This document shows, one piece after another, positions 8,701 through 59,520 of a stretch of DNA of 64,000 nucleotides (the stretch's first letter is position 1; each line of letters opens with the position of its first letter). The position numbers were made by a program, and so were the translations under genes. The notes beneath the pieces are model-generated. The model saw nothing but the letters and a program-made list of their open reading frames with translations. It did no database searches and was not told the origin of the DNA. Source of the stretch: Psychroserpens algicola (GTDB taxonomy: Bacteria; Bacteroidota; Bacteroidia; Flavobacteriales; Flavobacteriaceae); the NCBI RefSeq assembly GCF_014526325.1, contig NZ_JACNMJ010000001.1, positions 992,001-1,056,000 of the forward strand, written 5' to 3'.

Positions 8701-9036
8701 CAGTAAACAGATCACCTGAACATTTGTTCTAGTCTTTTTCATTTTGAAACGTTACTAGTATCATTTTATACAAGATGTTCTCCTTTCAGAAGCAAACAAT
8801 TTCAAAACAACAATTATTATGTTGTGCTTTACAACAATTAAAATCAGCATGTCCAAGCTTGGTTTTGTATTCTTAAATCAAATACTTTTAAAGGTATTAG
8901 GGAGTAATTATTGTGTTTTTTTGCAGCAAGAAAATGAATTACATCCCATAAATAGGTGATTTGTCGATTTTTAGCCTATTAAAAAAGCTTAACTGTTTTT
9001 TTTCTCGTATGTTGTTCACAGTTAAATGCCCCAAAC
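8701..9036 (+). other. 336-bp intergenic region ahead of the hybrid kinase
   Basis: No ORF of note is seen. It holds a small inverted repeat TGTTGT-gcttt-ACAACA (8820-8836) and an AT-rich stretch leading to the kinase start. No clear intrinsic terminator follows the tRNA, and no perfect TTG/TAnnTTTG promoter was found. The last bases before the kinase start match the candidate small RNAs (see 9027-9035). Confidence 0.5.
9027..9035 (+). promoter_or_regulatory. possible sRNA pairing site over the hybrid-kinase start region
   Basis: TGCCCCAAA, one base before the start codon at 9037, is an exact reverse complement of the segment TTTGGGGCA present in both candidate small RNAs at 21.7-22.1 kb. 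Downstream bases CATGAA and CTACT also match the antisense of the same RNA with small gaps. The complementarity is seen directly; regulation is inferred. Confidence 0.4.
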
Positions 9037-11397
9037 ATGAAACTAACACTACTATTTACCTATTTATTAGGTCTTAGCGTTTATGCTCAAGACTTACCAT
9101 TCAATCCGCAAAACAGTAAAGGTCAACTTTACGAGTACGCCGAATTTATTAACATCCAGGATCGTGAACTTAGTATCGATGAATTAATCGAAGATAGATC
9201 ATTAGAATTTGCTACACTTCAGTCAGAAAATCAAAGTGTCGGATTTACATCTGATAATTTCTGGGTTCGATTTCAACTCGAAAATACGTCTGATGAACAA
9301 GAAACGTATTATTTAGAGACGGCAAGACCAATTACAGATATTGCAAATTTGTATCATGTTTCAGAATCTGAAATTGAAGTATTTAAAAGTGGCGATCAAA
9401 TTAATTTTTCTGAACGCCAAGTAGCACACAGACTTACCGTTTTTAAAATTACGCTGCAACCCAATGCGGTACAAGAGTATTATTTGCATTTTAAAAGTGA
9501 TGGAGAAACTATTAATATGCCTTTAAACCTTTATGACGAATCGTCTTTTTGGATGATGAATTATAAACAACAATTGTTTTTAGGACTGTTTTATGGACTA
9601 CTCTTTTTGGCTAGTATTATTTACTTATTCTTTTATTCAAGCCTCAGAGAAAAAACCTTTTTATACTATGGTATTTATGTGTTTTCTATTGGATTAATGC
9701 AGGCAGCACTAGATGGTTTTATTTTTCAATACATATTACCAGAAGGCGGGTTTTTAAATAGTAGAGCTGTTCTGATTACAGCATTATCATCTAATTTTTT
9801 CCTATTAAAATACTGTGAGTATTTCTTAAAAATAGATATGCAACTGGCATCATTTAAAAGAGCCTATAATGTTATTTATGTCGTTTTAGCCGTTCTATTT
9901 GTAATGGTATTTATAAGTCCGAAAACATTAGAATTAGTTTACCCAATAAGTAATGTGAATGGTTTATTTAGCTTAATTCTAATTTTAGCAACAGTATTAA
10001 AAATGCGTTTTAAACGTATGTCTATTGATCCTTACTTTTCTGTTGGAATATTTTTCTTAGTACTTGGTTTATTAGGGTTTGTGATGAATAATTTAAGTTT
10101 AATTCCTAATAATTTCTACACTTTAAACAGTGCTAAATTTGGTTCTGGTTTTGAGGTCATTTTCTTATCCTTATCCATGACAAATTTACTGAGAAGATTA
10201 CGGGAAGAAAAAGAGCATTCACAAGAAGAAGCTCTTCGGAAATCTGAAGAAATAAGTGAGTTAAAAACTTACTTTATGTCTAATATTAGTCATGAATTAC
10301 GTACGCCTATAAATGCAATTATGGGCATTGCCGAATTAGAACTAAAAAGCCCCAAACATGCTTTAGAAGACAGAGAGCAATATCAAGTTATTAAAAATGC
10401 CTCATTAAGTTTATTGAGCAATGTTAATGATATTTTAGACTTTGAAAAGATAGAAAAGAATGAACTTAAGCTTAAACATGAAGTGTTTAACCCGTCGTTA
10501 TTAGTGAATCAAATTAGTAATAACTGGAAATCTGAAGCAGAGAAAAAAGGCCTAAGTTATAAGTTTGATATCGATTATGAAATTCCTACTACAATTATTG
10601 GAGATGCTGAGCGCTTTATACAAATTATTAATAATGTGTTGAGTAATGCTGTAAAGTTTACTGAAAAAGGGCATATTAAGTTTAAATTAAAATGCTCTAC
10701 CCAACCCAATCAGATCTCTCGTTTTTCAATTCAAATATCTGACACAGGAATTGGTATGGACGACAACAGTAAAAAGAACGTTTTTGATAGTTTCAATCAA
10801 ATGCGTTTAAATCACAAGCGTCAATTTGGTGGTATAGGTCTGGGATTAACAATCGTTAAACATTTAGTTGAATTATTTGAGGGTTCCATTCAAATTGAAA
10901 GTAAATTAGAACAAGGAACCAATGTGTTTATTGAGTTACCATTACAGTATATAGAAGACGTTGAAGCACCTAATGCACAGATTAGTCAAAACGCTAAACT
11001 AAAGCAACATGTTTTAGTGGTTGAAGACAATAAGATGAATCAAATGGTGATAAAAAAGTTGTTGGCGACCAATTCTCAAATGAGCTTTTTTGTTGTAAAT
11101 AATGGTCAGGAAGCATTAGAAGCATTAAAAAATGATGTTTTTGATATCGTATTAATGGATCTTCAAATGCCTGTAATGGATGGCTATGAAGCCACTAAAA
11201 TTATTAGAAGCGGACAATTAGGTCTTACTATTAGTGAGATACCAATCATAGCTGTTACTGCTGATGCTACGGAAGAAACTCAGCAAAAAGTCATGGCTTT
11301 AGGTATGAATGATTATATGACCAAACCTATCAATAAAGACGTGTTATTTAAAAAGATGGAAGCCTGTCATGTACAACCGAAGCTTAAAATTGCTTAA
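9037..11397 (+). CDS. 7TMR-DISM hybrid sensor histidine kinase / response regulator
   Basis: 786 residues. Order of parts: signal peptide (1-17, ending YA-Q), periplasmic 7TMR-DISMED2 beta domain (about 20-160, with FWVRFQLENTS), seven hydrophobic helices (about 180-385), a coiled-coil linker, a HisKA domain with phospho-acceptor H419 in SHELRTPINAIMG, an HATPase domain with N box NNVLSNAVKF and G boxes DTGIGM and GGIGLGLTIV, and a C-terminal receiver with acceptor D708 in VLMDLQMPVMDGYEA. It would sense an extracytoplasmic, perhaps carbohydrate-like, signal and relay phosphate internally. No DNA-binding output is fused, so a partner regulator is needed. Its TAA interlocks with that of the convergent hydrolase. 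The bases just before its ATG match the candidate sRNAs. Confidence 0.95.
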   Translation: MKLTLLFTYLLGLSVYAQDLPFNPQNSKGQLYEYAEFINIQDRELSIDELIEDRSLEFATLQSENQSVGFTSDNFWVRFQLENTSDEQETYYLETARPITDIANLYHVSESEIEVFKSGDQINFSERQVAHRLTVFKITLQPNAVQEYYLHFKSDGETINMPLNLYDESSFWMMNYKQQLFLGLFYGLLFLASIIYLFFYSSLREKTFLYYGIYVFSIGLMQAALDGFIFQYILPEGGFLNSRAVLITALSSNFFLLKYCEYFLKIDMQLASFKRAYNVIYVVLAVLFVMVFISPKTLELVYPISNVNGLFSLILILATVLKMRFKRMSIDPYFSVGIFFLVLGLLGFVMNNLSLIPNNFYTLNSAKFGSGFEVIFLSLSMTNLLRRLREEKEHSQEEALRKSEEISELKTYFMSNISHELRTPINAIMGIAELELKSPKHALEDREQYQVIKNASLSLLSNVNDILDFEKIEKNELKLKHEVFNPSLLVNQISNNWKSEAEKKGLSYKFDIDYEIPTTIIGDAERFIQIINNVLSNAVKFTEKGHIKFKLKCSTQPNQISRFSIQISDTGIGMDDNSKKNVFDSFNQMRLNHKRQFGGIGLGLTIVKHLVELFEGSIQIESKLEQGTNVFIELPLQYIEDVEAPNAQISQNAKLKQHVLVVEDNKMNQMVIKKLLATNSQMSFFVVNNGQEALEALKNDVFDIVLMDLQMPVMDGYEATKIIRSGQLGLTISEIPIIAVTADATEETQQKVMALGMNDYMTKPINKDVLFKKMEACHVQPKLKIA

Positions 11398-20990: not shown

Positions 20991-20998
20991 TAAATTTG
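20991..20998 (+). promoter_or_regulatory. -7 promoter element of sodA
   Basis: TAAATTTG fits TAnnTTTG. A TTG lies at 20974-20976 but only 14 bp away, shorter than the usual 19-20, so the -33 element is uncertain. The predicted leader is about 33 nt. Confidence 0.45.
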
Positions 20999-21034
20999 GT
21001 ATCATTAATTATTAACATTAAAAAACTAAATATT

Positions 21035-21643
21035 ATGGCTTTCGAATTACCGAAATTAAAATACGCATACGACGCATTAGAACCACATATCGATGCGCGC
21101 ACAATGGAAATACATCACACAAAACATCATAATGGTTACACAACAAAACTAAATGCTGCTATTGAAGGTACCGATTTAGAAGGGAAATCTATAGAAGATA
21201 TTTTAGGAAACCTTGATATGAATAATAAAGGTGTGCGAAATAATGGAGGTGGTTTTTATAATCATTCATTGTTTTGGGAGGTGATGAATCCTGAAGATAA
21301 AGGTTACCTTTCTGGAGATTTAAAAGATGCTATTGAAGCAGAATTTGGATCAAAAGATGCTTTTGTAGAAGCATTTAGTAAAGCTGCTGCAACTCAATTT
21401 GGATCGGGATGGGCATGGTTATGTGTTCACAAAGGTGGAAAAGTAGAGGTTTGTTCTACGCCAAATCAAGATAATCCATTAATGCCTGGTGTAACTTGTG
21501 GAGGAACACCAATATTAGGATTAGATGTTTGGGAGCATGCTTATTATTTAAACTATCAAAACAGAAGACCAGATTATATAGACGCTTTCTTTAAGGTTGT
21601 TAACTGGAATGAAGTAGAACGTCGTTACGCTGAAGCGAAATAA
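21035..21643 (+). CDS. superoxide dismutase (Fe/Mn type)
   Basis: 202 residues from the ATG at 21035, which begins [17 protein letters not shown] as Fe/Mn superoxide dismutases do; an earlier in-frame start at 20996 overlaps the promoter. Metal ligands: H27 in [12 protein letters not shown], the H of NHSLFWE, and D and H in [12 protein letters not shown]. The second-sphere FGSGWAWL is present. It converts superoxide to peroxide and oxygen in the cytoplasm. Metal preference cannot be settled by eye. It is monocistronic, with its own -7 element and a terminator 27 bp after the stop. Confidence 0.96.
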
Positions 21644-21741: not shown

Positions 21742-21812
21742 AAAAAAGCCGGACGAGAGTCCGACTTTTTTGCCCCAAATCTACCATAAACTTAACCTAC
21801 TTATGTTATGGT
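21742..21812 (-). ncRNA. candidate small RNA, copy 1 (about 71 nt)
   Basis: Read on the minus strand, a -7 box (21824-21817) is followed by a unit that begins ACCATAAC, contains AGTAGGTTAAG and AGATTTGGGGC, and ends in a hairpin GTCGGAC-TCTC-GTCCGGC plus T6. The 5' part can fold as ACCATAA/TTATGGT with a 16-nt loop. The hairpin has a U-G wobble in this orientation but a C-A mismatch in the other, which supports minus-strand transcription. The 43-nt core differs from copy 2 at one base, while the terminators differ completely in sequence but keep the structure. I do not recognise the family with certainty; Flavo-1 and other Bacteroidota sRNA families should be compared. Confidence 0.72.
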
Positions 21813-21816
21813 GAAA

Positions 21817-21824
21817 CAAATATA
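21817..21824 (-). promoter_or_regulatory. -7 element of sRNA copy 1
   Basis: TATATTTG on the minus strand is a perfect TAnnTTTG, placed 4 bp before the conserved sRNA start. No exact TTG -33 element is seen upstream. Confidence 0.6.
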
Positions 21825-22027
21825 ACAGCACTTTTATTTAATAGTTTAATTTTTTAGACCAACGACGAATAAATTGGCTTAAACGGAAAAAACACAGATT
21901 CATGGGCTTAAAGAAGAGCAAATAAACTTTAACTACAAGTAAGGATGTAAAAGAATTGATTAACAACTCCTTATAATAAACTTAAAAGATAAACTGACTA
22001 TTAGAAAAGAAGAGACCTTATTATAAT

Positions 22028-22100
22028 AAAAAAGAGTGAACAGAAGTTCACTCTTTTTTGCCCCAAATCTACCATGAACTTAACCTACTTATGTTATGGT
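22028..22100 (-). ncRNA. candidate small RNA, copy 2 (about 73 nt)
   Basis: Same architecture as copy 1: conserved start ACCATAAC, loop with AGTAGGTTAAG, linker AGATTTGGGGC, then a perfect terminator GAGTGAAC-TTCT-GTTCACTC flanked by A6 and T6. Relative to copy 1 the 43-nt core has a single change in the 3' arm of the first stem, leaving ACCAT/ATGGT plus AAC/GTT with a one-base bulge. The different terminator with equal structure indicates that the duplication is old or that the core alone is under selection. Transcription toward lower coordinates places it downstream of purF, but it carries its own promoter-like box. Confidence 0.72.
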
Positions 22101-22104
22101 GATA

Positions 22105-22112
22105 CCAATGTA
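22105..22112 (-). promoter_or_regulatory. -7 element of sRNA copy 2
   Basis: TACATTGG on the minus strand differs from TAnnTTTG at one base and sits at exactly the same distance from the conserved sRNA start as the box of copy 1. Confidence 0.5.
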
Positions 22113-22213
22113 TGCGTTTATTATCTAAGGTTTGTTAAATATTAGATGAAATGCATTTTTATCGGATTAAAAGCACTTTTTTTAGGATAAAGTGCCAAAA
22201 ATCAACCGTTTAT

Positions 22214-24112
22214 CTAGTAAGCTCTGGCTTTATTTCCTTCATAAAAATTAACGAATGCCCTGTTAACCACTCGGTTACCACCATCGGTAGGATAATTTCC
22301 AGTGAAATACCAATCTCCTAAATTTTTCGGACAGGCTTTATGTAGATTTTCTATAGGTTGAAAGATTGTTTTTACTTTAGCCTTAACAGTATCATCAGAA
22401 ATTAATTCAGCAATCTTATCAGAAATTTCATCTGCTGTAAATTCACTGTATAAGTCTTTGACAAAGTTTTTAACCTCACTATCTTTTAATTCTAGTTGAG
22501 CTTTACATTTATGATAGACCTCTTCAACTAAATGGTATTTGTCACGCTCTTTTAAAAGTTCCAGCATGGCTCTAAAAGCGATAAGGCTTTCAAGGTTAGC
22601 CATATCGATTCCGTAGCAATCAGGATATCTAATTTGTGGTGCCGAGGAGACTACAACGATTTGTTTTGGGTTCAAACGATCCATCATTTTAATGATACTC
22701 TTTTTGAGCGTGGTTCCTCTTACAATACTATCATCGATAATGACTAAATTGTCTGTTGATTTGATGACACCATAGGTTACATCATAAACGTGAGCAACTA
22801 AGTCGTCACGACTACTGTCTTCGGTAATAAACGTACGAAGCTTAACATCTTTAATTGCAATCTTTTCAATGCGTGGTCGTTCTGAAAGAATTTCAGTGAC
22901 ACGTTCTGCGGAGAGTTTACCATTACCATCTAAAATCGCTTGTGTTTTCTTTTCGTTCAAATGCTCTTCAACGGTTTCTATCATTCCAAAGAAGGATGTT
23001 TCCGCAGTATTTGGAATATAAGAAAATACGGTATTCTTAGTGTCGTTATCGATCGCCTCTAATACTTTTGGCATTAATAATTTACCAAGGTTTTTACGTT
23101 CCTGATATATTTCGGCATCACTTCCGCGGGAAAAATAAATACGTTCGAAGGAACAGGCTTTTCGTTCTAAAGGCGTTATGATTTCTTCAATATAGACCTC
23201 CCCAGATTTTTTAGTAATGATGGCATGGCCAGGAGTAAGTTCTTTAACGTCATCAAAACTGACATTAAAAACGGTTTGTATGACTGGTCGCTCTGAGGCG
23301 ACAACAACAATCTCCTCATCTTCATAATAATAAGCAGGTCTAATGCCAGCCGGATCTCTTAATACAAACGAATCGCCATGACCTAAAAGTCCTGCCATAG
23401 CATAACCACCATCCCAGTTTTTTGATGATTTTTTTAATATTTTAGCAACATTAAGGCGCTCGGCAATTAGTGGCGAACACTCATTTTTATTATAGCCTTC
23501 TTTTTTAAGCTTTTTATAAATCTTAGCAACAGCATCGTCCAAAAAATGACCAATTTTTTCCATTATAGTAATGGTATCAGCCTTTTCTTTTGGGTGCTGA
23601 CCTAATTGTACCAAACCATCAAATAGCTGATTTACATTTGTCATATTAAAATTACCAGCTACGATAAGATTTCTATGCATCCAGTTATTTTGTCTTAAAA
23701 AGGGGTGAACGCTTTCAACACTGTTTTTTCCAAACGTTCCATAGCGTACATGTCCTAAAAGTAATTCGCCAACATAAGGGATGTGTCTTTTTTGTAAGGC
23801 TACATCGTTTTGATATTCGGGATGTTCGGTAAGTTCATCATTTATACGCTCATTAATTTGAGCAAAAATATCTTGTATAGGTTGCTGCGCAATAGAGCGT
23901 ACACGACTTATATAACGCTCTCCAGGTTTGGTGTCTAATTTTATGCTTGCAAATCCAGCACCATCTTGTCCGCGATTGTGCTGTTTTTCCATCATGAGAT
24001 ACATTTTATTAACGCCGTAAAATGCACTGCCATATTTTTCTTTATAATACTCTAATGGTTTTTTAAGTCTTATGAGTGCAATTCCGCATTCATGTTTTAA
24101 AGCATCGCTCAT
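22214..24112 (-). CDS. purF: amidophosphoribosyltransferase-like class II glutamine amidotransferase (PurF family)
   Basis: 632 residues. An N-terminal class II glutaminase domain begins after a short propeptide: C9 in HECGIALIRL would become the N-terminal nucleophile once MSDALKHE is removed. HNRGQDGAG, the RYGTFG loop and GNFNMTN follow as expected. The phosphoribosyltransferase domain has the PRPP loop VIIDDSIVRGTTL. PurF makes phosphoribosylamine, the first step of purine synthesis. It is about 130 residues longer than E. coli PurF because of insertions in the glutaminase domain and a C-terminal extension, a bacteroidetal variant. The gene has a -7-like box upstream and lies downstream of purN, rnhA and pfkB on the same strand. 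Confidence 0.88.
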   Translation of the reverse strand: MSDALKHECGIALIRLKKPLEYYKEKYGSAFYGVNKMYLMMEKQHNRGQDGAGFASIKLDTKPGERYISRVRSIAQQPIQDIFAQINERINDELTEHPEYQNDVALQKRHIPYVGELLLGHVRYGTFGKNSVESVHPFLRQNNWMHRNLIVAGNFNMTNVNQLFDGLVQLGQHPKEKADTITIMEKIGHFLDDAVAKIYKKLKKEGYNKNECSPLIAERLNVAKILKKSSKNWDGGYAMAGLLGHGDSFVLRDPAGIRPAYYYEDEEIVVVASERPVIQTVFNVSFDDVKELTPGHAIITKKSGEVYIEEIITPLERKACSFERIYFSRGSDAEIYQERKNLGKLLMPKVLEAIDNDTKNTVFSYIPNTAETSFFGMIETVEEHLNEKKTQAILDGNGKLSAERVTEILSERPRIEKIAIKDVKLRTFITEDSSRDDLVAHVYDVTYGVIKSTDNLVIIDDSIVRGTTLKKSIIKMMDRLNPKQIVVVSSAPQIRYPDCYGIDMANLESLIAFRAMLELLKERDKYHLVEEVYHKCKAQLELKDSEVKNFVKDLYSEFTADEISDKIAELISDDTVKAKVKTIFQPIENLHKACPKNLGDWYFTGNYPTDGGNRVVNRAFVNFYEGNKARAY

Positions 24113-56638: not shown

Positions 56639-57412
56639 ATGATTTTACAATACAAAGACATCCCTGTTTTTTATGAAGATGAAGGAAAAGGAAAAGCTAT
56701 AATATTGCTTCATGGGTTTCTTGAAAATTCTACAATGTGGACAGACATTAAATCTATGCTGGTTGTAAATCACAGGGTAATCTGTATCGATTTGCTTGGG
56801 CATGGTAAAACGGGTTGTCTGGGTTATATGCACTCAATGCGTATGATGGCAGATACGGTTTTAGCTGTTTTATCTCATTTAAAAATACAAAGTTATAGTG
56901 TTATTGGTCACTCAATGGGAGGTTATGTAGCCTTAGAGCTTGCTGAAAAACAGCCTAAACAAATATTAGGATTGTGCTTGATGAATTCTACTTATGAAGC
57001 AGATGATGATGAACGTAAAACCCTTCGGAAAAGAGCTAATAAAATAGCAAAAACGAGTTATGAAAATTTAGTGCGACTTTCGTTTACTAATTTGTTTTCT
57101 GATGACAGTAGAGTACTCTATAAAAAAGCACTAGAAGACGCTTTGGCTCAAGCGTTGAAAACACCGTTACAAGGCTATTTAGCTGCACAAGAAGGGATGA
57201 TGAGCAGAAAGAATAAATTGGAGTTCTTTAAAACTTGGAATGCAAAAAAACTTATAATAATTGGAAAAAAAGATCCAGTTGTAAATGGTGAACGTATACT
57301 AAATGAGACTAAAGAGACGTCTATTGTTTGCGAGCAATTGTCTTTAGGACATATGAGTTATATTGAAAATAAGAAGGAATTATCTTACTTAATTAAACAT
57401 TTCGTCGAATAA
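56639..57412 (+). CDS. alpha/beta hydrolase
   Basis: 257 residues. The oxyanion segment LLHGFLENSTMWTDI, the nucleophile elbow GHSMGGYVALELA, an acid in LIIIGKKDPVV and the histidine in LGHMSYIEN give a full triad with the spacing of the MenH/BioH/haloperoxidase group. It is a cytoplasmic serine hydrolase. MenH-like activity in menaquinone synthesis is possible but no men gene is near. It is divergent from brnQ. Confidence 0.9.
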   Translation: MILQYKDIPVFYEDEGKGKAIILLHGFLENSTMWTDIKSMLVVNHRVICIDLLGHGKTGCLGYMHSMRMMADTVLAVLSHLKIQSYSVIGHSMGGYVALELAEKQPKQILGLCLMNSTYEADDDERKTLRKRANKIAKTSYENLVRLSFTNLFSDDSRVLYKKALEDALAQALKTPLQGYLAAQEGMMSRKNKLEFFKTWNAKKLIIIGKKDPVVNGERILNETKETSIVCEQLSLGHMSYIENKKELSYLIKHFVE

Positions 57413-57459
57413 AAATACTTTTAAACCTAATTATTAACTTTTTTTTCTAAGTTTACTAT

Positions 57460-57470
57460 CCCCAAATCTA
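57460..57470 (+). promoter_or_regulatory. possible sRNA pairing site in the leader of the 57477 gene
   Basis: CCCCAAATCTA, six bases before the start codon, is an exact 11-nt reverse complement of TAGATTTGGGG in both candidate small RNAs. CCATGAA at the start codon and CTACT just inside the gene also fit the antisense of the RNA. Confidence 0.45.
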
Positions 57471-57476
57471 AGAGCC

Positions 57477-57743
57477 ATGAAAAAAGCTACTACAAAGACA
57501 TCCAGTCCGTTAAGAATTTACTGCGACATTTTTGGTCATAAATACGAAATGACTAAAAAAGTAACATCTCACGTAAAAGAGTACACTTGTAAGTGTTGTA
57601 AACGCCAACTAACTACAAATGGGAACGGAAAACTTACCGAGTTAACACCTAAATATCAAGAAATAAATGCCATTTTAGAAGACATTTATACACGCAGAAT
57701 GATGCGTTTAAAGAGTAAAACGCTCAGTTCGTCGATATATTAG
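57477..57743 (+). CDS. small zinc-ribbon-like protein A
   Basis: 88 residues. After a basic N-terminus it has Y-C-D-I-F-G-H-K-Y, then a histidine (SHVKEY), then C-K-C-C-K: a C-x3-GH...C-x2-C arrangement that could bind one zinc ion. The second half is NGNGKLTELTPKYQEINAILEDIYTRRMMRLKSK, a predicted helix with a basic end. It is a paralogue of the next gene and, more distantly, of the one at 59281. Similar short C-x3-GH proteins are known as DUF1660-like or hypothetical; I do not know a function. The leader matches the candidate sRNAs. Confidence 0.75.
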   Translation: MKKATTKTSSPLRIYCDIFGHKYEMTKKVTSHVKEYTCKCCKRQLTTNGNGKLTELTPKYQEINAILEDIYTRRMMRLKSKTLSSSIY

Positions 57744-57817
57744 TGTAAAATTCTCACCTTATTAGATGATTTTTTATATTTAAGCATCCTCTAATTTAAT
57801 ATCTAAAACCATAAAAG

Positions 57818-58084
57818 GTGAAAAGTCTCTATTGTTCAATTTTTGGGCATCAGTACGAAGTCTCAAAAAATATAACGTATCACGTTAAAGAATACAAATG
57901 CTCACACTGCAAATCACAAGCAACCACGAGCGGAAATGGTGGTCTAACCCTCTTGACACCTAAATACAAAGAAATTAATTCAGTTTTAGAGCGCATTCAC
58001 AATAAGCGCATATCCAGAATTAAACGACAGGCATCAGAAAAATCGACAGAAAATTTGCTGGATTTTACGCCTCATTTTTCATAG
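57818..58084 (+). CDS. small zinc-ribbon-like protein B
   Basis: 88 residues from a GTG start (GTG-AAA-AGT); no upstream in-frame ATG exists, and the position matching the start codon of protein A reads ATA and is out of frame. YCSIFGHQYEVSKNITYHVKEYKCSHCKSQ keeps the C-x3-GH...H...C-x2-C pattern, followed by SGNGGLTLLTPKYKEINSVLERIHNKR, closely similar to protein A. The last 20 bases overlap the 3' end of convergent thiL. The function is unknown; the basic tail and single zinc site might bind nucleic acid. Confidence 0.72.
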   Translation: MKSLYCSIFGHQYEVSKNITYHVKEYKCSHCKSQATTSGNGGLTLLTPKYKEINSVLERIHNKRISRIKRQASEKSTENLLDFTPHFS

Positions 58085-59129: not shown

Positions 59130-59258
59130 GTAGCTTTTTTTAAAGCAATGTATGGATTTAAGGTATTTTTAAGGGCTTCGGAAATCTTAAAAGATGTATT
59201 TCATCGAAAATACATGTATTTTATCGGTACTAACGACAATAATGATTAAGTTAGGCGT

Positions 59259-59283
59259 CCCAAATCTTATTAAACCTACTATG
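59259..59283 (+). promoter_or_regulatory. possible sRNA pairing site in the leader of the 59281 gene
   Basis: CCCAAATCT (59259-59267) is the exact complement of AGATTTGGG in the candidate sRNAs, and TTAAACCTACTATG (59270-59283) fits the antisense of their loop (CATAAGTAGGTTAA) with two single-base gaps, reaching into the start codon. Confidence 0.4.
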
Positions 59284-59520
59284 CAAACCAACAGAACTAA
59301 CGAACTGTCGTGTTCCGTCTTTGGACACAATTTAGAACGTTCATCAGTGGCATCTCATACGAATCGTCAATTGGTGTGTAAAACCTGTAACTCAAATGTT
59401 TCGGTTACTGAAGATGGTGACTTCAATATGCTTCCTTTTAAAAACCGTGATATTAAAACAGCTTTAAGACAGCTTTTTATTTTAAAAAACCAGAATTCAA
59501 ATCGGCAATTTTCAGTTTAA
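59281..59520 (+). CDS. small zinc-ribbon-like protein C
   Basis: 79 residues from ATG 59281; a longer frame from 59194 starts inside the leader. S-C-S-V-F-G-H-N-L, then H (SHTNRQL), then C-K-T-C gives the same C-x3-GH...H...C-x2-C pattern as proteins A and B, with a diverged C-terminal helix (LPFKNRDIKTALRQLFILKN). It is the most distant of the three paralogues that surround thiL. The function is unknown. Its leader, like that of protein A, matches the candidate sRNAs. Confidence 0.7.
   Translation: MQTNRTNELSCSVFGHNLERSSVASHTNRQLVCKTCNSNVSVTEDGDFNMLPFKNRDIKTALRQLFILKNQNSNRQFSV

What the first reader, a model, noticed from the sequence alone, without database searches (positions are those of the whole stretch)
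21742..22112. Two tandem small RNA genes with promoter boxes and separate terminators
Two units 288 bp apart on the minus strand share a 43-nt core with one difference. Each core is preceded at the same distance by a TAnnTTTG-like box (TATATTTG, TACATTGG) and followed by an intrinsic terminator. The terminator sequences differ completely while the structure is kept, which indicates selection on an RNA. Copy 1 has a U-G pair on the minus strand that would be a C-A mismatch on the plus strand, fixing the direction. Transcripts would be about 71 and 73 nt with a 5' hairpin and a single-stranded linker AGATTTGGGGC. They may belong to a known Bacteroidota family such as Flavo-1, or be new.
Basis: partly seen in the sequence, partly recalled or inferred. 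Interest (0 to 1): 0.78.

Follow-up and report, generated by a model that had tools for sequence, protein, structure and literature searches.

The report
Conserved tandem small RNAs of flavobacteria
Two neighbouring genes in this bacterium would make almost identical 70-letter RNAs that belong to a very strongly conserved flavobacterial family with no entry found in the RNA family database, and their conserved parts match the start regions of a few messenger RNAs, most of all those of a small unstudied zinc-binding protein, as if to switch them off.

Summary
Two minus-strand units between purF and a superoxide dismutase gene share a 42-nt core with one difference, equal box spacing and separate terminators. 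No Rfam family matches at its gathering score. A covariance model of the units matches 282 of 349 Flavobacteriaceae genomes sampled (five of them weakly) and, outside the family, only chance-level sites. The core hardly changes across genera; terminators change with compensation. Upstream lies a direct repeat (TGCATTTCATCTAA-like, 20-bp period) with the layout of LytTR-regulator sites. In 864 kb of the genome the leaders most complementary to the core are those of two small zinc-ribbon genes (window 57477, 59281), a lipoprotein-like gene and a hybrid histidine kinase (9037). In 89 genomes, leaders of the zinc-ribbon gene match the RNA's loop (GUAGGUU) and linker (UUUGGG) more than shuffled RNAs do, beside the start codon; 56 of 89 carry the same repeat. 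RNA and zinc-ribbon gene co-occur (105 of 122 against 2 of 27 genomes). Best reading: a LytTR-type regulator drives both, and the RNAs repress translation start. Expression, regulator and sign of regulation are untested; samples of two other genera showed no further targets. It resembles Bacteroides FopS but fails its membership tests.

The parts
22060..22101 (-). 42-nt core of copy A (C type), nearer purF: 5' hairpin with loop AUAAGUAGGUUAAG, segment GUUCAUGG, linker AGAUUUGGGGC
21772..21813 (-). 42-nt core of copy B (T type)
22028..22059 (-). intrinsic terminator of copy A
21742..21771 (-). intrinsic terminator of copy B
22105..22112 (-). -7 box of copy A, TACATTGG
   Evidence: TAnnTTTG consensus read in PMC9723704
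21817..21824 (-). -7 box of copy B, TATATTTG
22142..22196 (-). three LytTR-like direct repeats upstream of copy A (GGCACTTTATCC, TGCTTTTAATCCGA, TGCATTTCATCTAA; periods 21 and 20 bp)
21854..21887 (-). two LytTR-like direct repeats upstream of copy B (TCCGTTTAAGCCAA, CGTCGTTGGTCTAA; period 20 bp)
22214..24112 (-). purF, flanking gene (conserved neighbour)
20996..21643 (+). superoxide dismutase, flanking gene (conserved neighbour)
57477..57743 (+). predicted target P1, small zinc-ribbon-like protein (88 aa)
57460..57481 (+). site in the P1 leader complementary to linker and GUUCAUGG segment of the sRNA (CCCCAAATCT...CCATGAA)
57396..57429 (+). LytTR-like direct repeat in front of P1
59281..59520 (+). 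predicted target P3, distant member of the P1 protein family (27% identity)
59259..59280 (+). site in the P3 leader complementary to linker and loop of the sRNA (CCCAAATCT...AACCTACT)
59195..59228 (+). LytTR-like direct repeat in front of P3
9037..11397 (+). predicted target, hybrid histidine kinase (7TMR-DISM, HisKA, HATPase, receiver)
9028..9041 (+). site at the kinase start codon complementary to the sRNA (GCCCCAAA...CATGAA)

Best explanation
The two units are genes for members of a Flavobacteriaceae-wide family of trans-acting, base-pairing small RNAs of about 71-73 nt. Each is transcribed from its own sigma-A-type promoter, probably activated by a LytTR-type response regulator bound to the 20-bp-period direct repeats. 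The 5' hairpin displays GUAGGUUAAG and half-hides the segment GUUCAUGG; the linker AGAUUUGGGG is single-stranded. These segments pair with complementary sites at or just before the start codon of a small set of mRNAs: chiefly those of a conserved small zinc-ribbon protein, in this genus also a hybrid histidine kinase, and in this genome also a lipoprotein-like gene. They thereby block translation start. Because 56 of 89 P1-type target promoters tested carry the same repeat, the circuit looks like an incoherent feed-forward loop. Shown: sequence, conservation, synteny, repeat layout, excess complementarity, co-occurrence. Inferred: transcription, identity of the regulator, pairing in the cell, repression rather than activation.
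For: sRNA family: 282 of 349 family genomes; core nearly invariant while terminators covary; PurF and SOD both within the fetched DNA of 85 of 118 loci. Regulator layout: a weight matrix learned on one unit of 379 promoters scores +4.1 on average exactly 20 nt upstream and -15 to -30 at every other offset from 10 to 59; LytTR layout and the YpdB motif GGCATTTCAT are in passages of PMC4847170 and PMC11347149. Targets: the four best of 686 leaders in 864 kb; five leaders score 11 or more, against 0.39 on average (max 2) for 100 shuffled RNAs. Test in P1 homologues of 89 genomes, 87 outside the genus: mean 7.44 against 4.30 (sd 0.78, max 6.31, 300 shuffles); repeat pairs above 15 before 56 of 89 against 8 of 686 leaders of the own genome. 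Complementary blocks peak on GUAGGUU and UUUGGG, up to 29 of 89 leaders each. AACCTAC within 30 nt of the start in 16 of 89 P1 leaders against 2 of 686 leaders of the own genome. Genera differ in which segment is matched, e.g. a 15-nt perfect match to the loop in L378. Co-occurrence 105 of 122 against 2 of 27, p 4e-15 without phylogenetic correction.
Against: No expression data. 34 of 89 P1 leaders have no exact block of 7 nt, and the best of 200 shuffled RNAs reached 52 such leaders against 55 observed. Without the start codon the P1 excess is smaller (6.07 against 4.03) and the best of 300 shuffles (6.21) exceeds it. In 400-kb samples of two other genera the number of highly complementary leaders does not differ from chance; those samples held only one gene with a repeat pair above 15, and its leader is not complementary. 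A plain duplex-energy scan of leaders showed no clear excess over shuffles. Many P1 promoters of more distant genera have no recognisable repeat pair, and the kinase promoter scores only 8.2. The repeat scan over 464 kb found 26 pairs against 18 in random sequence; seven clearly exceed the control maximum, three of them the sRNAs' own. The regulator was not identified among the 12 LytTR genes. Leaders are related by descent, so the 89 are not independent.
Confidence: 0.6

Rival explanations
1. Same sRNA and same pairing, but it activates its targets, for example by opening a leader hairpin that in some genera holds CCCAAA in its loop, or by stabilising the mRNA.
For: In a group of genera the leaders can fold a hairpin with CCCAA in its loop, so pairing could remodel it. 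Rfp18 of F. psychrophilum is needed for full levels of two of its target mRNAs (PMC9723704).
Against: The AACCTAC and CCATGAA sites lie directly against or over the start codon, where pairing usually blocks initiation, as FopS does (PMC11697453, passages). The hairpins are weak one by one (z from +0.2 to -2.7 in 13 folded).
Confidence: 0.15
2. The RNAs work mainly as decoys for an RNA-binding protein; complementarity to a few leaders is secondary.
For: Near-invariance of the whole core, paired and unpaired parts alike, and several tandem copies per genome are what a protein ligand would show.
Against: No RRM protein was found in 60 family genomes and no Hfq in 41, with positive controls ringing; other binding proteins were not sought. 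Complementarity peaks on the loop and linker.
Confidence: 0.12
3. It is a distant homologue of Bacteroides FopS and acts on SusC-type transporter mRNAs.
For: UUCAUGG and AGAUUU occur in the same order in the FopS consensus; local alignment p 0.013 for the window core and 0.0018 for a variant by shuffling, not corrected for FopS having been picked from a list. One SusC-like gene of G443 (by eye) carries TTAACCTA before its start.
Against: 18.2 bits against a gathering score of 56; 0 of 199 family genomes reach E 0.001 with the FopS model; no RbpB-type RRM protein found. No SusC-like gene was seen among the 26 best leaders printed for the own genome (by eye).
Confidence: 0.08
4. The conserved stretch is a DNA element or encodes a short peptide (MVDLGQK...), not an RNA gene.
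For: An ORF starting MVDLGQK is open in both copies, 24 aa each.
Against: Over 380 copies the peptide diverges after the core, with lengths from 5 to 161 aa; variants with one inserted base shift the frame. Promoter boxes and covarying terminators flank the core.
Confidence: 0.03

Closest known systems
FopS, family of paralogous sRNAs of Bacteroides (Rfam RF04319; PMC11697453, passages and section 8 seen)
   Same: About 65-70 nt, several paralogues per genome, sigma-A-type promoter, conserved pairing segment with UUCAUGG and AGAUUU, intrinsic terminator, sites near the start codon of targets.
   Different: FopS has a single-stranded 5' part, SusC-type targets and the RRM partner RbpB; this family has a 5' hairpin, a tandem array beside purF, zinc-ribbon and kinase targets, LytTR-like repeats, and no RRM protein found.
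Rfp18 and the other Rfp RNAs of Flavobacterium psychrophilum (PMC9723704, abstract, passages, sections 15 and 20 seen)
   Same: sRNA conserved among flavobacteria.
   Different: Rfp18 is said to pair through a third stem-loop and targets metalloprotease mRNAs; the sRNA here has one hairpin plus terminator.
LytTR response-regulator sites (E. coli YpdB GGCATTTCAT; PMC4847170 and PMC11347149, passages seen)
   Same: Direct repeats of about 9-11 nt; nearly the same letters as the YpdB site; upstream of the promoter.
   Different: The period here is 20 bp, so a 10-nt unit leaves a 10-nt spacer, at the short end of the reported 10-13; the regulator is not identified.
Flavo-1 RNA
   Same: Found in the same group of bacteria (recalled).
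   Different: Not among Rfam matches of the region even at E up to 10.

Membership tests
FopS (RF04319) | match to the covariance model at the gathering score of 56 bits | tested here: not met
   18.2 bits; 0 of 199 family genomes at E 0.001, control rings in Bacteroides
FopS (RF04319) | single-stranded 5' seed followed by a terminator only | tested here: not met
   a 5' hairpin is predicted; arm variants can still pair by inspection
FopS (RF04319) | partner protein RbpB (RRM) | tested here: not met
   PF00076 in 0 of 60 family genomes; control rings in Bacteroides
FopS (RF04319) | pairing at the start codon of targets | tested here: inconclusive
   complementarity at start codons; pairing itself not tested
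Flavo-1 | match to the Rfam model | tested here: not met
LytTR-regulated promoter | two direct repeats of about 10 nt, 10-13 nt apart, upstream of the promoter | tested here: met
   (379 promoters, period 20); layout read
LytTR-regulated promoter | bound by a LytTR-domain protein | not testable with these tools
   12 LytTR genes in the genome, none assigned
trans-acting base-pairing sRNA | own promoter and terminator, no conserved peptide | tested here: met
   (by sequence; transcription not seen)
trans-acting base-pairing sRNA | conserved complementarity to mRNAs encoded elsewhere | tested here: met
   no excess in samples of two other genera
trans-acting base-pairing sRNA | regulates target protein output | not testable with these tools
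   needs an experiment
Rfp18 | sequence identity with Rfp18 | not testable with these tools

The most novel reading that the evidence does not exclude
A hyperconserved two-seed sRNA family forms, together with a LytTR regulator, a feed-forward circuit across Flavobacteriaceae that works without Hfq or RRM chaperones. It is closely coupled to an undescribed zinc-ribbon protein whose leaders have switched between loop and linker pairing during evolution, so that one nearly invariant RNA is read in different ways by different genera.
Probability: 0.4. Interest if true: 0.82.

Novelty: new member of a known kind. Interest (0 to 1): 0.68.

Why it matters
Flavobacteriaceae are important polysaccharide degraders in sea and soil, and little is known of their sRNAs or of how sRNAs act without Hfq (both recalled). 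This family matches about four of five family genomes sampled, has a nearly invariant core and comes with named, testable targets and a candidate regulator class. It could give the family a model sRNA, and the way target sites change their partner segment would be a natural experiment on how pairing sites evolve under a frozen sRNA.

Tried and rejected
Flavo-1 and every other Rfam family: no match of the region at gathering score; the sub-threshold lists are largely terminator-like matches. FopS membership: rejected, kept as an analogy. Rfp18: structure and targets as described differ. Peptide: rejected. Phage carriage: no exact match of a 21-nt pattern in viral contigs. Duplex-energy target scan: no clear excess over shuffles; replaced by a two-block exact-complementarity score with shuffles. 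That score was devised after I had seen the P1, P3, 803185 and kinase leaders, so the P1 homologues outside the genus (87 of the 89) are the fair test. Targets in the G169 and G443 samples: nothing beyond chance. Three model matches outside the family (34-36 bits) are at the level of antisense terminator matches (up to 42 bits, in 89 of the 227 loci then held) and were not counted. Structure of P1: mean pLDDT 83.7, no PDB match at E 0.001, so no function from it. Pfam and NCBIfam give nothing above cut-off for P1, P2 or P3; DUF1660 is below its cut-off.

Full report
Observation. On the minus strand between purF and a superoxide dismutase gene lie two units 288 bp apart. Each has a -7-like box, a 42-nt core with a single C/T difference and an intrinsic terminator. 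Folding alone would not have proved much: the whole RNAs fold better than all 200 shuffles because of the terminator, while the core alone does not (z -0.95). Comparison is the real evidence.

Distribution. A 42-nt pattern with up to 3 mismatches is found in all 23 genomes of the genus, each with at least two copies, and in 5 of the 34 further genomes of that search. A covariance model built from 32 distinct units matches 282 of 349 family genomes, 196 of 237 genera; five of the 282 are weak (33-43 bits), one of them cut by a contig end. In 247 genomes of the phylum 26 match: 23 are of the same family and 3 are at noise level. In 296 genomes of the order 40 match at E 1e-6, all of the same family. 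Of those 118 loci, 85 hold both PurF and SOD within the fetched DNA, 17 PurF only, 8 SOD only, 8 neither. A 21-nt pattern of the core has no exact match in viral contigs.

Anatomy. In 32 distinct copies 44 of the first 47 columns are invariant, while the terminator stem changes with compensation: 99.1% of cells paired over the whole structure, 5 pairs with changes on both sides, 1 of 500 shuffles as high. The 5' helix hardly varies there, so says next to nothing for or against it. In more distant members the 3' arm GUU(C/U)AUGG mostly stays, while the 5' arm reads CCAUAAC, CCAUAGC, CCUGAAC or CCAGAAC; by inspection each can still pair with it with a shifted bulge. The order C then T, read along the sRNA strand, is the commonest two-copy pattern in fetched loci (83 CT, 28 CC, 4 TT; identical copies in overlapping loci had been dropped). 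No peptide is conserved beyond the core.

Promoter. In 308 of 383 distinct copies a box with at least 5 of 6 TAnnTTTG letters lies at one distance. Upstream there is a direct repeat. The best 14-nt unit lies at one of three adjacent positions in 358 of 379 promoters, and the weight matrix learned on it finds a second unit exactly 20 nt upstream (mean +4.1; every other offset from 10 to 59 is between -15 and -30). The unit (TGCCGTTCGTCTAA in one consensus; TGCATTTTATCTAA in another) resembles the YpdB motif GGCATTTCAT, and the layout is that reported for LytTR response regulators: 9-11 nt repeats 11-13 nt apart in one paper, 9 bp repeats 10-13 apart in another (PMC4847170 and PMC11347149, passages). 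Its likeness to the AlgR box is recalled, not looked up. The genome has 12 LytTR genes; which one acts is unknown. Over 464 kb the pair scan gives 26 hits above 13 against 18 per random copy; seven clearly exceed the control maximum, three of them the sRNAs' own.

Targets, discovery. Looking at other genes behind such repeats I saw leaders complementary to the sRNA. I then scored all leaders in 864 kb of the genome by two-block exact complementarity. The best four of 686 are window 57477 (14.5), 59281 (13.5), a gene at C8:803099 whose product looks like a lipoprotein by eye (11.8) and the hybrid kinase at 9037 (11.4). Five leaders reach 11, against a mean of 0.39 and a maximum of 2 for 100 shuffled RNAs; in the first run with 40 shuffles the mean was 0.7 and the maximum 3. 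Of the four, the first two have repeat pairs above 15, the third 14.3, the kinase only 8.2. Genes with a pair above 15 have complementarity of 9 or more in 3 of 8 cases, others in 17 of 678. Predicted net pairing energies with the full sRNA are -23.1 (57477), -20.6 (59281), -14.1 (803099) and -17.9 kcal/mol (9037). In the genus, CCCAAAT is kept in 17 of 22 P1 leaders (counted by eye), and GCCCC(C)AA before the kinase start in 7 of 8 sequences including the window (13 of the 20 regions fetched gave no kinase).

Targets, test in other genera. The P1 protein (C-x3-GH-x16-C-x2-C, no Pfam or NCBIfam family above cut-off) is found in 107 of 149 family genomes. Leaders were usable in 89 of 90 loci, two of them from the own genus. 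Mean complementarity is 7.44, against 4.30 with sd 0.78 and maximum 6.31 for 300 shuffled RNAs; 20 of 89 reach 10 (0.67 expected) and 13 reach 11 (0.1 expected). Without the start codon the excess shrinks (6.07 against 4.03) and the best shuffle, 6.21, exceeds it. Repeat pairs above 15 precede 56 of 89, against 8 of 686, 0 of 330 and 1 of 334 leaders in three genome samples. Blocks of 7 nt or more fall on sRNA positions 14-20 (loop) and 35-40 (linker), up to 29 of 89 leaders each; 55 of 89 have one, shuffled mean 12.8, sd 7.9, best shuffle 52. AACCTAC within 30 nt of the start is in 16 of 89 P1 leaders against 2 of 686, 1 of 330 and 1 of 334; CCCAAAT within 70 nt in 17 of 89 against 6, 1 and 1; permuted words reach at most 9 and 11 of 89. 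Genera differ in which segment is matched: linker plus start codon (L373, L380), loop alone (L378, 15 nt perfect; L397), or both with a possible hairpin between (L433, L434, L439). The 17 leaders aligned were picked for the CCTAC motif, so its invariance there is by selection; of 13 folded, the hairpins are weak singly.

Co-occurrence. Over the 149 genomes taken to be common: both present 105, sRNA only 17, P1 only 2, neither 25; Fisher p 4e-15, without correction for relatedness or genome completeness.

Results against. Two 400-kb samples of other genera show no excess of complementary leaders. The energy-only scan shows none in the own genome. Over a third of P1 leaders (34 of 89) have no block of 7 nt. 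Nothing shows that the RNA is made.

Mechanism. Most likely the RNAs pair at the start codon region and block initiation. Hfq and RRM proteins were not found (0 of 41 and 0 of 60 genomes), so pairing would be unaided or helped by another protein. As repeats precede both the sRNAs and many P1 promoters, one regulator would switch on both: an incoherent feed-forward loop that gives a pulse or a ceiling of target protein. This last step is inference.

Known or not. FopS of Bacteroides is the nearest in logic (passages and section 8 of PMC11697453) but fails by score, structure and partner. The F. psychrophilum map describes 85 Rfp RNAs (PMC9723704, sections 15 and 20); one could be this RNA, and I could not open the tables. 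An F. columnare study reports candidate sRNAs without Rfam matches (PMC5395568, passages). Searches for FopS, Rfp18, purF with tandem sRNAs, flavobacterial sRNAs, LytTR with flavobacteria, and four stretches of the core itself gave no paper on it. The library holds open-licence papers only.

Verdict.

Noticed in passing
window 57477-58084 and 59281-59520: Three genes of one small zinc-ribbon-like protein family without a Pfam or NCBIfam model above cut-off, found in 107 of 149 family genomes searched; function unknown.
   Followed up: partly
window 22105-22112 and 21817-21824: The box of copy A (TACATTGG) has its TTG one base closer than copy B (TATATTTG), recalling the SM5 promoter class of F. 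psychrophilum; the difference is mostly kept between the two paralogues in the genus, so the copies may be expressed under different conditions.
   Followed up: no
G000:C8 631237 (+), 585070 (-), 1226432 (+), 775173 (-): Further promoters with the LytTR-like double repeat; the leaders behind 585070 and 1226432 carry AACCTAC shortly before the start codon.
   Followed up: partly
L221:1501-1579, L223:235-306, L224:1501-1572: Weak model matches (33-43 bits) whose hairpin differs but whose linker ATTTGGGGC is kept; possibly diverged members.
   Followed up: no
G000:C8:948461-948963: A LytTR-domain gene directly in front of a repeat pair of a somewhat different type (GCATTTCGTCGATTTTTTTTGCGTTTTATGGA), suggesting several regulators with similar sites.
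   Followed up: no
L079, L081, L202, L205, L213: Arrays of five to seven tandem copies of the sRNA at one locus in some genera.
   Followed up: partly
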